In this document: piece after piece, positions 23,190 to 64,000 of the stretch
Layout of the letters: every line of letters starts with the position of its first letter
Position numbering within the stretch: the first letter of the stretch is position 1
Assembly: GCF_001050275.1 (NCBI RefSeq)
Contig: NZ_BBYA01000012.1
Location: 124,001-188,000, forward strand
Direction of reading: 5' to 3'
DNA: 64,000 bases
Source: Leptolinea tardivitalis
GTDB taxonomy: Bacteria > Chloroflexota > Anaerolineae > Anaerolineales > Anaerolineaceae
Made by a program: the position numbers and the translations under genes
The notes under the pieces: generated by a model
What the model was told of the DNA's origin: nothing
The model's input: only the letters and a program-made list of their open reading frames with translations
The model's database searches: none

Positions 23190-23239
23190 GAATGTAATGA
23201 AAAATCGGTAGAGGGGGATGACAATTGAATAATGGATGC

Positions 23240-23418
23240 AACGGGGAAGAGACTGTTTGAAAACGGCACCGAAGGGGCAAACAAACGCTTCAGAAACGTT
23301 TGCGAATCTCTCAGGTAAAAAGGACCCTGCTGCGATCTCCTCTGGAAAGGGTTTTCCCACCGAAGGGGCAAATTGTAGATTTAATCAATGAATCTCTCAG
23401 GTTTAAGACAGAGTTGAC
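23240..23418 (+). ncRNA. Tandem glycine riboswitch (gcvT type, two aptamers)
   Basis: The conserved core occurs twice: CACCGAAGGGGCAA at 23267 and again at 23358, each followed by a variable hairpin and GAATCTCTCAGGT (about 23303-23316) or GAATCTCTCAGGTTT (about 23390-23404). This is the classical cooperative two-aptamer glycine riboswitch. It lies directly upstream of gcvH-gcvPA-gcvPB, whose enzymes break down glycine, so glycine should turn the genes on. Confidence 0.95.
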
Positions 23419-58274: not shown

Positions 58275-58388
58275 TAAATCGGCAGACTGTTTTGTCTTTT
58301 TCGATCTCCAGTCTCATTGTCCTTTTTCAGTAGAACAAACCAGATGATATTGGATCTGGTAATTTTTTGATGAAATCCTTAAATTCTA

Positions 58389-58416
58389 TTGACATATAGC
58401 ATTGTTGGTGTATACT
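58389..58416 (+). promoter_or_regulatory. Promoter of the lysW operon
   Basis: A perfect TTGACA (58389-58394) and TATACT (58411-58416) are 16 bp apart. The predicted start is about 58423, some 185 nt before lysW. The 114 bases before this box, after the carrier-protein gene, show nothing else. Confidence 0.8.
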
Positions 58417-58426
58417 AGTTTTCAAT

Positions 58427-58507
58427 ATGTTCACGAAATCATTTGTTTTCACCCCGCTCAAGAAGCGAAGCTCAAAGATCAACCCCTCGGGAGAGAGGTC
58501 ATTTTGA
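58427..58507 (+). CDS. Candidate Lys/Arg-rich leader peptide of the lysW operon
   Basis: A 26-codon frame begins about 4 bases after the predicted transcription start, so it would be leaderless. It contains four Lys (K4, K12, K13, K17) and two Arg (R14, R24), with a K-K-R run at 58460-58468. Its last codons overlap a segment able to pair with the 5' arm of the terminator at 58546-58577. These traits fit a ribosome-stalling attenuator, but translation is not shown. Confidence 0.45.
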   Translation: MFTKSFVFTPLKKRSSKINPSGERSF

Positions 58508-58555
58508 CTTAAGGTGAGACAGTAATATCTGCAAGTACACCAATCAAAATCCCTC
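58493..58555 (+). promoter_or_regulatory. Candidate antiterminator pairing in the lysW leader
   Basis: GAGAGG-UC-AUUUU (58493-58505) can pair with AAAAUCCCUC (58546-58555), giving 10 base pairs with two small bulges. This would take the 5' arm away from the terminator. The same GAGAGG can instead pair with ACCCCTC (58482-58488). Confidence 0.4.
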
Positions 58556-58577
58556 CGAACCCGGAGGGATTTTTTTA
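58546..58577 (+). terminator. Intrinsic terminator between the lysW promoter and lysW
   Basis: AAAATCCCTCCG and CGGAGGGATTTT enclose a 4-nt loop and run into TTTTTATTC. It lies after the promoter and before the first gene, so it must be regulated for the operon to be expressed. Confidence 0.9.
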
Positions 58578-58607
58578 TTCTTTTTTCGTCATAAAAGGAG
58601 ATTGAAA

Positions 58608-58784
58608 ATGTCTACAGAAATTATTGCGAATTGCCCTGAATGTGATGCCGAACTCACCCTCATTGATGTAATGGAAGGTGAAATCATTGTTTGTTCCGAT
58701 TGTGGTGTTGACCTGGAACTTGTCAGTCTTGAGCCACTTACTCTGGAACTCGCACCTATGGAACAGGAAGACTGGGGAGAATAA
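58608..58784 (+). CDS. lysW: LysW amino-group carrier protein
   Basis: 58 residues, ATG after AAAAGGAGA. The zinc ribbon Cys are C9, C12, C29 and C32 (CPEC, CSDC). The C terminus is EDWGE, the hallmark of LysW, whose last Glu side chain is linked to the amino group of aminoadipate or glutamate. It then carries the intermediate through lysX, lysY, lysZ, lysJ and lysK. The protein is strongly acidic, as expected. Confidence 0.96.
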
Positions 58785-58786
58785 TC

Positions 58787-59749
58787 ATGTCAGCCGTGAA
58801 AACATCAAAGTCAATGAAAATTGGGGTTTTACTTTCTCGTATCCGGGTGGAAGAAAAATGGCTTCTGACAAATCTGGAAAAACGAGGAGTTGACTTTGAT
58901 CGAATCGAAGATGGCAACATCCAGATGGATATCACCAATCCCGATAACTGGATGAAATATGACGCTGTACTGGAACGTTCATTATCATTCACGCGCGGTC
59001 TCTATGCCACATCCATTCTGAATTCCTGGGGAATTCCTACTGTCAATATGGCTTCCGTCGCTCAGGTATGCGGTGACAAACTGGCCACCACCAGTGTACT
59101 GGCGAAAGCAGGTGTACCTCAACCAAAAGTCAAAGTGGCCTTCACGCCAGAGGCAGCACTCGAAGCCATTGAGGAAATGGGTTACCCTGTAGTGATGAAA
59201 CCTGTGGTTGGCTCATGGGGCCGTCTTCTATCCAAAATCAATGATCGTGATGCAGCAGAAGCAATTCTCGAACATAAAGATACTCTGGGTTCTTTCCAAC
59301 ATTCTGTTTTCTATATTCAGGAATACATCAAAAAACCTGGCCGCGATATCCGTGCGATGGTTGTAGGCGATCAGACGATTTGTGCCATTTATCGCACATC
59401 ATCCCATTGGATCACCAATACCGCCCGCGGCGGTCAGGGAGAAGTATGCCCGGTCACACCAGAATTACATTCCATTTGTCAGGCAGCAGCAAACGCTGTC
59501 GGCGGTGGTGTACTGGCTGTTGATGTTCTGGAAGATGAAAACAACGGTTTGCTGGTAAATGAAGTGAACCATACTATGGAATTTCACACTCTGGCACCCG
59601 TCACCGGTATTGACATTGCGGGTGTGATCATCGACTATACGCTCAATACAGCCCGCGGGCTGGCCCAATCCCCAATAAAGATCAAACCGGCAGAAAGTCA
59701 TCTGCCCATTAATTTAGCCGCATATCCCCTTTATACAGTAGGTGCCTGA
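58787..59749 (+). CDS. lysX: LysW-substrate ligase (RimK-type ATP-grasp)
   Basis: 320 residues. ATP-grasp features: [38 protein letters not shown] and the Mg-binding [12 protein letters not shown]. It attaches the amino group of aminoadipate (LysX) or glutamate (ArgX) to the LysW C-terminal Glu. NTARGGQ occurs in the substrate loop, as in LysX proteins, but specificity is not certain. It starts two bases after lysW and overlaps the lysY region. Confidence 0.93.
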
Positions 59750-59750
59750 A

Positions 59751-60782
59751 ATGAAAGTTTCTATTATTGGCGGTTCTGGTTACGCCGGCGGTGAGCTTCT
59801 CCGCTTACTTCTCAACCATCCGGATGTTGAGGTATTCCAGGCAACTTCGGAAAGTCACCTTGGAGAATATGTTTACCAGCAACATCCCAACTTACGCAAA
59901 CAGACCAAATTAAAATTCACTTCCCGCCAGGTTCTTGAACCGTGTGATGTCTTGTTCCTTGCCTTACCCCACGGAGAAGCCCAGAAAAACATTGACCAAT
60001 ATGCTGGATTGGCTCCAAAAATTGTCGATCTCTCTGCAGATTTTCGTCTGCACGATCAAACCTTGTATAAAAAATACTATGAGAGCGATCACCTTGCTCC
60101 AGCCTGGGTTGAAAAATTTGTATACGGACTTCCTGAACTACACCGCTCAGAAATGAACACAGCTTCTTATATCAGCGGTGTCGGTTGTAATGCTACGGCC
60201 AGTATTCTCTCTCTTTACGTAGGGATCAAATATGGTTTTCTCGATACAACCCAACCGATATTCGTTGAAATAAAAGTCGGTTCCTCAGAAGGTGGAGCAT
60301 CTGCCAACCCCGGGTCTCATCACCCTGAAAGAAGCAATGTCATCCGCACCTTTGCTCCCTATGGCCACCGCCATACTGCTGAGGTTATGCAGGAACTTGG
60401 TTTAAGCAATGTTCACCTGACCATGACATCTGTGGATCTGGTTAGAGGTGCTCTTGCTGCCGCCCACGGTTTTGTCAAACCGGGTGTTACAGAAAAAGAT
60501 ATCTGGAAGGCTTATCGGGAATGGTCAGAATCAGAGCCCTTCATACGCCTGGTGAAAGATCGCCGCGGCATCTACCGCGTACCAGAACCGAAGATTCTGG
60601 CTGGAACCAATTATGCCGATGTCGGATTTGATCTTGACCCGGATACCGGTCATTTCATCGGTATGGCAGCCATTGATAACCTCATGAAAGGCGCTTCCGG
60701 GACAGCCGTTCAAGCTATGAACCTTATCTGTGGATTCGAAGAAACTTCCGGTCTTGGCTTCTGCGGATTACACCCCATCTAA
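59751..60782 (+). CDS. lysY: LysW-aminoadipyl/glutamyl-phosphate reductase (ArgC family)
   Basis: 343 residues from the ATG at 59751 (TAGGTG upstream); a GTG at 59742 is also in frame. N-terminal NADP loop VSIIGGSGYAGGELLRLL, active-site Cys in GVGCNATAS, and HPERSN / GRHTAEV-type segments (here APYGHRHTAEVMQ). It reduces the acyl phosphate on LysW to the semialdehyde. Confidence 0.94.
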   Translation: MKVSIIGGSGYAGGELLRLLLNHPDVEVFQATSESHLGEYVYQQHPNLRKQTKLKFTSRQVLEPCDVLFLALPHGEAQKNIDQYAGLAPKIVDLSADFRLHDQTLYKKYYESDHLAPAWVEKFVYGLPELHRSEMNTASYISGVGCNATASILSLYVGIKYGFLDTTQPIFVEIKVGSSEGGASANPGSHHPERSNVIRTFAPYGHRHTAEVMQELGLSNVHLTMTSVDLVRGALAAAHGFVKPGVTEKDIWKAYREWSESEPFIRLVKDRRGIYRVPEPKILAGTNYADVGFDLDPDTGHFIGMAAIDNLMKGASGTAVQAMNLICGFEETSGLGFCGLHPI

Positions 60783-60806: not shown

Positions 60807-61610
60807 ATGCTCGTCGTAAAAATTGGTGGTTCCCAGGGTGTAGAGTTGGATGGCGTTTGCACCGATATTGCAAATCTTGTTTCCGAAGGTCAACCAGTGG
60901 TTGTTGTTCATGGTGGTTCGGCAGAAACCAATGAAATCTCCGAAAAACTTGGTTTTCCTCCCAGGTTTGTTACCAACCAATCCGGCTTTACCAGCCGGTA
61001 TACCGATCGCAACACCCTTGAAATCTTTGCCATGGTAACCAACGGGCGGATTAATACCCTGCTTGTTGAACGTCTTCAGAAAAACAATGTCAATGCCATT
61101 GGCCTTTCAGGTCTTGATGCCCGCCTTATGGTGGCAAAACGCAAAGAAGCTATCCGTATCATTGAAAATGGCCGACAGCGCATGCTGCGCGATGATTACA
61201 CAGGGAAGATTGAGACCGTCAACGGTGATTTCCTCGAAATGCTGGTTAATTCCGGGCTAACCCCCGTAATTTCTCCTCTGGCCATGTCAACCGATGGAAT
61301 TGCTCTTAATGTGGACGCCGACCGGGCAGCTGCAATGGTGGCCGGTGCTGTGAAAGCCTCAGAATTGATCATTCTGACCAATGTTCCCGGCCTGATGCGT
61401 AATTTTCCAGATGAAAGTACGGTCATTCCGCATATTCCACGCAACGGGCTTGAACAGGCTCTTTCACTGGCAGAAGGCCGCATGAAAAAGAAAGTACTGG
61501 GAGCCAGTGAAGCGCTTAATCTCGGTGTTCCCAAAGTCATCTTTGCTGATGGCCGTGTTGAACACCCATTAAAAAAAGCTCTTTCAGGTACCGGAACAGT
61601 CATCTCTTAG
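60807..61610 (+). CDS. lysZ: LysW-aminoadipate/glutamate kinase (ArgB family)
   Basis: 267 residues, amino-acid kinase fold. LVVKIGGSQG phosphate loop, VVVVHGGSAETNEI, ALNVDADRAAAMVAGA and LILLTNVPG-like ELIILTNVPGLM are visible. It phosphorylates the side-chain carboxylate of the LysW-bound substrate. GGAGA lies about 13 bases before the ATG. Confidence 0.94.
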   Translation: MLVVKIGGSQGVELDGVCTDIANLVSEGQPVVVVHGGSAETNEISEKLGFPPRFVTNQSGFTSRYTDRNTLEIFAMVTNGRINTLLVERLQKNNVNAIGLSGLDARLMVAKRKEAIRIIENGRQRMLRDDYTGKIETVNGDFLEMLVNSGLTPVISPLAMSTDGIALNVDADRAAAMVAGAVKASELIILTNVPGLMRNFPDESTVIPHIPRNGLEQALSLAEGRMKKKVLGASEALNLGVPKVIFADGRVEHPLKKALSGTGTVIS

Positions 61611-62857: not shown

Positions 62858-64000
62858 ATGGATTCCGTTTCGCTGCTGACCGGACTACTGCAGCATTTCA
62901 GCCCGACAGGTGCTGAAAGTGAGGCTGTGAATTATCTGGTTGGCGCTATGCAGCTGATGGGTTTTCAATCCTATGTTGATTCAATGGGAAATGCCGTGGG
63001 CAAAATTGGCCAGGGCAGCCGTGAAATAGTGCTTCTTGGTCACATTGATACGGTTCCAGGGGAAATATCTGTTCGACAGGAAGATAATATTTTATTTGGC
63101 AGAGGCGCAGTGGATGCAAAAGGTCCGCTCGCCTCTTTTGTTGCCGCGGCATCTGCCTGTCGCAAATCTTCCGATTGGCATATCACGGTTATAGGTGCCG
63201 TCGGAGAAGAAGGCGATTCTCGTGGAGCTAAATTCTTATGTCAGAATTATCCAGCTCCAGAAATGGTGGTCATTGGTGAACCCAGCGGTTGGGAAGCAAT
63301 TACCCTGGGTTACAAAGGAAGTCTATGGGTGGAACTAGGCTTTCGGCAACCTGCTTCCCATACAGCTTCTGGACAAATCAGTGCGTGTGATTGTGCTGTA
63401 ATTTTTTGGAATCAATTAGCCAAAGATTTGCAATTATTGAATGATGGGAAAAACCGCGCTTTTGACCGCTTTTCCCCTTCCATACGTTCGATGAAATTTA
63501 ACTCGAATGGGTTTGAAGATTATGCATCTTTGAAAATCAATATTCGCCTTCCTCAGGGAACGGACTTCGATGCTCTTCAAGCATTATTCACTGCCTGCAT
63601 TGAAACAACTCAAATTACACCTGAAATATCTATTCTTGATTACATGCCACCATATCTTGCAGAAAAGAATACTTCCCTCGTTCGTGCATTTCTTTCCGGA
63701 ATTCGCAAAAATGGCGGTACACCCGGCTTCAAATTGAAAACAGGAACAGCAGACATGAACCTGGTGGGTCCTGCCTGGAATTGTCCGGCCATTGCATACG
63801 GTGCAGGTGATTCAAACCTGGATCACACAGCCAATGAACATATTGAGTTACCTGAATACTTGCTGGGTATTCAGGTTCTCAAGGATTCCCTCGAAAGAAT
63901 TCAGGGAATTCAAGACAACAACAGTAACACAAAATCAGACCAGCAAAACATGTTGGCCAATGCTAAGCAGCTCGCCAAGGATAAGAAGCCAGATACTATC
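62858..64000 (+). CDS. lysK: LysW-lysine/ornithine hydrolase (M20 family), 3' end outside window
   Basis: 381 codons are visible with no stop before the window ends. The ATG is 4 bases after the lysJ stop. Dizinc M20 motifs: GHIDTVPG, GRGAVDAKGP, GAVGEEGDSRGA and GEPSGW, then KLKTGTADMN near the C terminus. It releases lysine or ornithine from LysW. The region after ERIQGIQ is a polar extension rich in Asn/Lys that goes beyond the usual family length (about 350). Confidence 0.9.
   Translation, partial: MDSVSLLTGLLQHFSPTGAESEAVNYLVGAMQLMGFQSYVDSMGNAVGKIGQGSREIVLLGHIDTVPGEISVRQEDNILFGRGAVDAKGPLASFVAAASACRKSSDWHITVIGAVGEEGDSRGAKFLCQNYPAPEMVVIGEPSGWEAITLGYKGSLWVELGFRQPASHTASGQISACDCAVIFWNQLAKDLQLLNDGKNRAFDRFSPSIRSMKFNSNGFEDYASLKINIRLPQGTDFDALQALFTACIETTQITPEISILDYMPPYLAEKNTSLVRAFLSGIRKNGGTPGFKLKTGTADMNLVGPAWNCPAIAYGAGDSNLDHTANEHIELPEYLLGIQVLKDSLERIQGIQDNNSNTKSDQQNMLANAKQLAKDKKPDTI

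What the first reader, a model, noticed from the sequence alone, without database searches (positions are those of the whole stretch)
58389..58607. Ribosome-stalling attenuator for the LysW lysine/arginine operon
Between a perfect-(-35) promoter and lysW lie a 26-codon frame with K-K-R and K17, and a strong terminator. GAGAGGUCAUUUU (58493-58505), within the last leader codons, can pair with the terminator 5' arm (58546-58555). A ribosome at the stop would cover this strand and let the terminator form. One stalled at K12-K17 would block the competing ACCCCTC arm and free the antiterminator. This is classical attenuation logic, for a pathway where I know of no described leader peptide, and the leader itself seems leaderless.
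Basis: partly seen in the sequence, partly recalled or inferred. Interest (0 to 1): 0.82.

Follow-up and report, generated by a model that had tools for sequence, protein, structure and literature searches.

The report
Lysine/arginine leader-peptide switch before lysW
In front of a gene set that makes lysine and (probably) arginine, this bacterium has a tiny gene rich in lysine and arginine codons that most likely works as a shortage sensor: a ribosome that stalls there keeps the gene set switched on, and relatives carry similar devices with codons that mostly match what their own gene set makes.

Summary
The window lies in a Leptolinea-like genome (Chloroflexota, Anaerolineae). A TTGACA/TATACT promoter, a 26-codon ORF starting 10 nt after the -10 box (MFTKSFVFTPLKKRSSKINPSGERSF*) and a 12-bp terminator precede lysW. 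The operon encodes LysW, two LysX ligases, LysZ/J/K, homocitrate synthase and homoaconitase: lysine plus, probably, arginine. Folding calculations give the predicted switch: pairing of the terminator 5' arm is 0.81-0.83 with a ribosome at K12-R14, 0.09 at the stop codon. Sixty-two leaders (this genome and relatives) support attenuation. Lys is in the core of 21/21 lysW leaders with linked homocitrate synthase, 6/21 without, 0/14 argG leaders. The window genome's own argG leader is MKSELRVRRT..., and its hisG and hisD have HHHH/HLHHH leaders. In 49 of 59 foldable leaders stalling favours the antiterminator (18.7 expected). No experiment exists; response to starvation is inferred.

The parts
58389..58416 (+). 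sigma-70-type promoter TTGACA-16-TATACT
   Evidence: same hexamers and same spacing to the leader ATG in the two Leptolinea relatives L010 and L011
58427..58507 (+). leader ORF MFTKSFVFTPLKKRSSKINPSGERSF*, predicted leaderless (ATG 10 nt after the -10 box)
58460..58468 (+). sensor codons K12 K13 R14 (AAG AAG CGA)
   Evidence: identical in the three Leptolinea leaders
58475..58477 (+). K17 codon (AAG); Lys in L011 but not in L010
58482..58488 (+). region 1 (ACCCCTC), pairs with region 2 when no ribosome is present
   Evidence: free fold
58493..58507 (+). region 2 (GAGAGGUCAUUUUGA, end of leader including the stop codon), 5' strand of the antiterminator
58513..58541 (+). small hairpin capping the antiterminator (GGUG...CACC)
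58544..58557 (+). region 3 (UCAAAAUCCCUCCG), 3' strand of the antiterminator and 5' arm of the terminator
58546..58576 (+). intrinsic terminator, 12 pairs plus U tract
58596..58600 (+). AGGAG, likely ribosome-binding site of lysW
   Evidence: read
58608..58784 (+). lysW, first gene of the operon
   Evidence: TIGR01206 69.6 bits, cut-off 53.2
58787..59749 (+). lysX copy 1 (suspected ArgX-type ligase)
59742..60782 (+). argC/lysY-type reductase
60807..61610 (+). lysZ, [LysW]-aminoadipate kinase
   Evidence: NF010659 383.9 bits
61630..62853 (+). lysJ/argD-type aminotransferase
62858..64000 (+). lysK-type hydrolase (start codon uncertain), running past the window; followed in the genome by lysS, homoaconitase subunits, a homoisocitrate-dehydrogenase-type enzyme and a second lysX

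Best explanation
58389-58576 is a ribosome-mediated transcription attenuator of the lysW lysine/arginine operon. RNA polymerase starts at or within a few bases of AUG 58427, and a ribosome loads directly on the 5' end. If charged tRNA-Lys or tRNA-Arg is short, the ribosome stalls at AAG-AAG-CGA (codons 12-14). It then covers the 5' strands of the competing free-RNA structure, so 58495-58507 pairs with 58544-58555 and sequesters the terminator's 5' arm: transcription reads through into lysW. If both amino acids are plentiful the ribosome reaches the stop codon, covers 58493-58507, and the terminator forms. The promoter, ORF, terminator and alternative pairings are shown by sequence and computation. 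Leaderless initiation, stalling and the Lys+Arg response are inferred. That the operon makes arginine as well as lysine is inferred from gene content.
For: Antiterminator pairing in the window: 0.81-0.83 stalled, 0.09 at the stop, 0.52 without ribosome; structures. Across 59 of 62 curated leaders (3 lack a called terminator), stalling strengthens the antiterminator by at least 1 kcal/mol over the stop position in 49; 18.7 expected from shuffles, combined p 4e-23 over related sequences. The antiterminator strand starts 15-21 nt after the core codons in 36 of 59 (counted). Codon content tracks gene content: core Lys 21/21 (LysS linked), 6/21 (not linked), 0/14 (argG); Mann-Whitney on K/(K+R) of whole peptides, linked against not linked, 7e-7. 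In the 12 genomes with both a LysS-linked lysW leader and an argG leader in hand, core Lys is higher in the lysW leader in all 12. The own-genome argG leader is MKSELRVRRTMSLPHLRMVG*. In an own-genome scan blind to codon content (57 hits; reversed-pattern control 39), 3 of the 48 hits that I read further have a short ORF plus terminator: hisG MEQICIALHHHHNFSPN*, hisD MKPVLFAHLHHHRLFTLDTFRRAH* and one unclear. ORFs picked by promoter score alone (10 or more): 23 of 25 hold a K/R doublet, 10.4 expected. Core Lys codons in Leptolinea lysW leaders are AAG in 6/6 against 36/185 in 11 window genes; core Arg codons of Leptolinea leaders CGA in 11/12 against 25/186.
Against: No expression, start-site or ribosome data. 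The window's duplex alone does not beat shuffles (z +0.47). Ten of 59 leaders do not show the switch; four of them (L031, L176, L208, L216) go the wrong way by 1 kcal/mol or more. Two Lys-rich leaders (L199/G201, L202/G184) lie in genomes where no homocitrate synthase passed 1e-90; L185 has core Lys (VRRRK) without linked LysS. 91 of 132 lysW upstream regions have no terminator by my fixed rule: in many of these lysW follows a coding gene (by eye), but the rule also missed regions with a leader (e.g. L036, L165, L180, L182, L200, found with a laxer rule). Core motifs and most distant leaders were chosen by eye. Only 30 of 62 leaders have a 10/12 promoter near the ATG, so leaderlessness is not general. 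The own genome also has a lysA match above cut-off, so this operon may not be its only lysine route. Rows are related genomes, so p values are overstated.
Confidence: 0.87

Rival explanations
1. The leader is an attenuator, but responds to arginine only (or to lysine only), the other codons being incidental.
For: Core Arg is present in 21/21 lysW leaders without linked LysS and 14/14 argG leaders.
Against: All 21 leaders with linked LysS have core Lys, and 6 of these 21 have no core Arg; L167, L170 and L181 have no Arg at all; AAG-AAG-CGA is identical in three Leptolinea genomes.
Confidence: 0.2
2. A nascent-chain arrest peptide senses free arginine or lysine, rather than codon stalling on uncharged tRNA.
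For: A basic motif in a roughly fixed place could act in the exit tunnel.
Against: Residues outside the K/R core differ widely between genera; K and R change with gene content; minor codons AAG and CGA are strongly preferred in Leptolinea; sister leaders in the same genome carry His runs.
Confidence: 0.06
3. A riboswitch or T-box controls the operon and the ORF is chance.
For: The untranslated RNA folds well with the terminator (z -3.4); T-boxes exist upstream of trpE in two relatives.
Against: At Rfam gathering scores the window holds only a glycine riboswitch elsewhere, and six lysW/argG leader loci (L162, L097, L101, L107, L110, L178) give nothing but an unrelated tRNA in L178; without the terminator the leader is no more structured than shuffles (z -0.56); the ORF recurs.
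Confidence: 0.03
4. Constitutive promoter and terminator of an unrelated short transcript, with a chance ORF.
For: A terminator between operons is common.
Against: The terminator lies between the promoter and lysW on the same strand and recurs with the leader; codon content matches gene content.
Confidence: 0.04

Closest known systems
Leader-peptide attenuator of the Thermus thermophilus lysine (LysW/AAA) gene cluster (recalled: Tsubouchi et al., J Biol Chem 2005; not found in the library, nothing of it seen)
   Same: Leader-peptide transcription attenuation in front of LysW-type lysine genes
   Different: Other phylum; details of that leader could not be compared here; here Arg codons join Lys and an Arg-only form stands before argG
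Classical his/trp/ilv ribosome-mediated attenuators (his: passages seen in PMC9413887)
   Same: Leader ORF with runs of the regulated amino acid's codons, mutually exclusive antiterminator and terminator
   Different: Lys/Arg codons, predicted leaderless start, other phylum; the mixed codon content resembles ilv leaders (recalled)
Leaderless trpL attenuator of Sinorhizobium meliloti (passages seen in PMC7298713)
   Same: Transcript starts at the leader AUG; transcription attenuation
   Different: Tryptophan; Alphaproteobacteria; the start is known there, only inferred here
Leaderless poly-Cys sORF attenuators of mycobacteria (only a reference seen, in PMC13236596)
   Same: Leaderless short ORF with runs of the sensed amino acid
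   Different: Cysteine; Actinobacteria

Membership tests
Ribosome-mediated transcription attenuator | Short ORF with codons of the operon's product | tested here: met
   K12 K13 R14; codon/gene-content association, (translation itself not shown)
Ribosome-mediated transcription attenuator | Intrinsic terminator between leader ORF and first gene | tested here: met
Ribosome-mediated transcription attenuator | Antiterminator exclusive with terminator and controlled by ribosome position | tested here: met
   computed only: (49 of 59 leaders)
Ribosome-mediated transcription attenuator | Expression rises when the amino acid is short | not testable with these tools
   needs reporter or RNA-seq
Leaderless leader peptide | Transcription starts at the AUG | tested here: inconclusive
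   -10 to ATG 6-10 nt in 29 of the 30 leaders (of 62) with a promoter of 10/12 or better; no mapped start
T-box | Match to RF00230 | tested here: not met
   (window, gathering threshold)
Lysine riboswitch | Match to the Rfam lysine riboswitch model | tested here: not met
   (window, gathering threshold): only match is RF00504 glycine
Thermus lysine-cluster leader | Common descent with that leader | not tested
   no Thermus leader sequence was fetched

The most novel reading that the evidence does not exclude
Anaerolineae control the LysW pathway and argG with a family of often leaderless attenuators whose codons were rewritten as operons gained or lost homocitrate synthase: Lys-only, Lys+Arg (a two-input OR gate, as in Leptolinea) and Arg-only. 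The leader codons then read out what a LysW operon makes, where enzyme annotation cannot.
Probability: 0.6. Interest if true: 0.72.

Novelty: new variant of a known kind. Interest (0 to 1): 0.62.

Why it matters
Bacterial arginine control is usually ascribed to repressors (recalled); an Arg-codon attenuator, and one that reads Lys and Arg together for a shared carrier-protein pathway, would be unusual. It gives a direct, testable prediction of whether a LysW operon makes lysine, arginine or both, which annotation of LysX/ArgX leaves open. It also suggests that a little-studied phylum uses leader peptides for His, Arg and Lys in one genome.

Tried and rejected
Simple duplex test of region 2 against the terminator arm: fails for the window (z +0.47) though 33 of 59 leaders pass p<0.05. 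A likely reason is that the window's antiterminator uses 58544-58545, just upstream of the arm I had cut.

Tryptophan control: trpE leaders were meant as a contrast; only 4 of 18 genomes gave a trpE match at 1e-60, and the two upstream regions fetched are T-boxes, so no use as contrast. The His leaders served instead.

Exceptions looked into after the fact: of the 6 leaders with core Lys but no linked LysS (L036, L042, L062, L067, L087, L185), the first five, and L058 (Lys near the core), come from genomes with a divergent homocitrate-synthase-family protein, 207-237 bits, below the cut-off. For L042, L058 and L087 it lies downstream of lysW, apparently on the same contig (judged by equal contig lengths) and next to homoaconitase-type large-subunit genes. 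L185 stays unexplained. Regrouped after seeing the leaders, and with L036, L062 and L067 set aside, core Lys is 23/24 against 1/15; the figure before regrouping, 21/21 against 6/21, is the one I rely on.

LysX/ArgX specificity from the motif after NEVNHTMEF: copy 1 in the window reads FHTLAP..DIAG, copy 2 FHSTVP..DIPG, the latter ending like Thermus LysX; suggestive only, no tested rule was at hand.

Rows dropped: 22 of 80 named loci without a lysW found by my motif; L123, L129, L132, L139, L143 (lysW start not found); L163, L164, L197, L198 (duplicates); L179 and L175 (K-rich stretch, start codon unclear); L181, L185, L202 (no terminator called). In L119 the linked LysS is a low-scoring match split over two frames. 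argG: of 25 places listed, 21 upstream regions were read (20, the own one), 4 were not fetched (G378 three, G151 one); leaders in 14 of the 21. Seven of the 57 pattern hits were not read further. The alignment was cut wrongly for the third sequence and is not used.

Full report
What is there. The window lies in contig 12 of a 3.69 Mb genome whose LysX is 84-92% identical to that of Leptolinea genomes. The operon continues beyond the window: lysW, lysX copy 1, an argC-type reductase, lysZ, lysJ, lysK, then homocitrate synthase, homoaconitase large and small subunits, a homoisocitrate-dehydrogenase-type enzyme and a second lysX. Two ligases and one set of shared enzymes suggest that it makes both lysine and ornithine/arginine; this is inference.

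Relatives. I collected regions upstream of lysW from 58 of 80 named loci (the other 22 had no lysW by my motif), 3 own and same-genus loci, 54 of 59 regions of the same family and 40 of the same class: 132 distinct regions. Of these 41 have a terminator starting within 160 nt of lysW by a fixed rule. Choosing the ORF by promoter score alone, 25 regions have a score of 10 or more, and 23 of these ORFs hold an adjacent K/R pair (10.4 expected from shuffles). In many of the other regions lysW directly follows a coding gene; several of those end in an argH-like C-terminus (read by eye, not annotated).

Codons follow gene content. I curated 62 leaders: 48 before lysW, 14 before argG. Where homocitrate synthase (TIGR02146) lies within 10 kb downstream of lysW on the same strand, all 21 have Lys in the core motif; without it 6 of 21; before argG 0 of 14; 6 lysW leaders could not be assigned. 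Some leaders of distant LysS operons have Lys and no Arg (MTCASIFAKSKSKQP..., MFPFSILKCKKQ..., MILSDGIKHKKKMPT*), others Lys with some Arg; leaders without linked LysS are mostly RR-type (RARRP, MRRP, FRRT); leaders of dual operons are mixed (LKKR, PKRK, DKRRK). In the 12 genomes with both a LysS-linked lysW leader and an argG leader in hand, the lysW leader has more core Lys in all 12. Collapsing near relatives by hand leaves 19/19 against 4/14. G201 and G184 have Lys leaders without a detected LysS and remain unexplained.

Same genome, other leaders. argG of the window's genome has promoter TTGACG/TACAAT, ATG 7 nt after the -10, MKSELRVRRTMSLPHLRMVG*, then a terminator. A scan of the whole genome for promoter-to-ATG spacing, blind to codons, gave 57 hits against 39 for the reversed pattern. 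The lysW and argG sites are among the 57; I read 48 of the other 55 in context (30 loci and 18 fetched stretches). Three of these 48 have a short ORF followed by a terminator: one before hisG (HHHH), one before hisD (HLHHH), one of unknown meaning (L263). The His genes are confirmed by NCBIfam.

The switch. With the RNA folded up to the terminator loop and the ribosome footprint blocked, the window's terminator 5' arm is paired upstream with probability 0.81-0.83 when the ribosome stands at K12-R14, 0.09 at the stop and 0.52 without ribosome. The antiterminator helices are the same for stalls at K12, K13, R14 and K17. The two other Leptolinea leaders form the same kind of structure with altered sequence, for example UUUUGA/UCAAAA in the window and UUUUGG/CCAAAA in L010. 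Over 59 leaders the stalled state is the stronger by 1 kcal/mol or more in 49, against 18.7 in shuffles of the region between core and terminator; four go the other way. Footprint limits (16 nt upstream, 15 downstream of the P site) were my assumption. In the three full-length states folded (free, stalled at K12, at the stop) the terminator is in the minimum-energy structure, so the switch must be kinetic, as in known attenuators.

Codon choice. The Lys codons of the three Leptolinea lysW cores are all AAG (6/6), though 11 window genes use AAG in 36 of 185; Arg codons of Leptolinea cores are CGA in 11 of 12 against 25 of 186. Use of minor codons fits codon-level sensing; an RNA-level constraint on the same bases is not excluded.

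Literature. Ten searches of the held library listed no paper on Lys/Arg leader peptides in Chloroflexota; the lists were capped (25 of 36, 15 of 284, 12 of 305), so this is weak evidence of absence. I recall a 2005 J Biol Chem paper on leader-peptide attenuation of the Thermus thermophilus lysine cluster; two searches for words of its title gave no paper, and a paper on lysine-gene evolution in that phylum (terms searched in PMC3356886) does not mention attenuation. A leaderless attenuator is described in Sinorhizobium (passages of PMC7298713) and leaderless Cys attenuators in mycobacteria (a reference in PMC13236596). A genome-wide leader-gene study names Chloroflexi among groups whose data were too few to judge (passage of PMC4833913).

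Verdict. An attenuator for the lysW operon is the best reading (0.87). It is a known kind of device in a new place and with a new, gene-content-matched Lys/Arg codon logic; the physiological response is untested.

Noticed in passing
G000:C4:3047 (L234) and G000:C5:20350 (L237): Predicted leaderless histidine leader peptides MEQICIALHHHHNFSPN* and MKPVLFAHLHHHRLFTLDTFRRAH*, each with a terminator, before hisG and hisD.
   Followed up: partly
G000:C11:18632 (L263): Promoter, predicted leaderless 32-codon ORF (MLLKTSLTSTGKCSWLMPGRWCPKTASDHECD*) and terminator before an unannotated gene; no Rfam match at gathering score.
   Followed up: no
23234-23337: Glycine riboswitch aptamer (RF00504, 56.4 bits).
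   Followed up: no
L271 (G003) and L272 (G060): T-box leaders upstream of trpE in two relatives, so Trp there uses another RNA device than Arg/Lys.
   Followed up: partly
L273, L274, L275, L276, L277, L278: Divergent homocitrate-synthase-family proteins (207-237 bits to TIGR02146, below cut-off), three of them apparently in lysW operons with homoaconitase-type genes.
   Followed up: partly
L199 (G201) and L202 (G184): Lys-rich lysW leaders in genomes where no homocitrate synthase passed 1e-90.
   Followed up: no
58339-58360: Bidirectional terminator-like hairpin just after the biotin-carrier gene, upstream of the lysW promoter.
   Followed up: no
G000:C8:530578: lysA (diaminopimelate decarboxylase) match above cut-off in a genome that also has the AAA/LysW lysine operon.
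   Followed up: no
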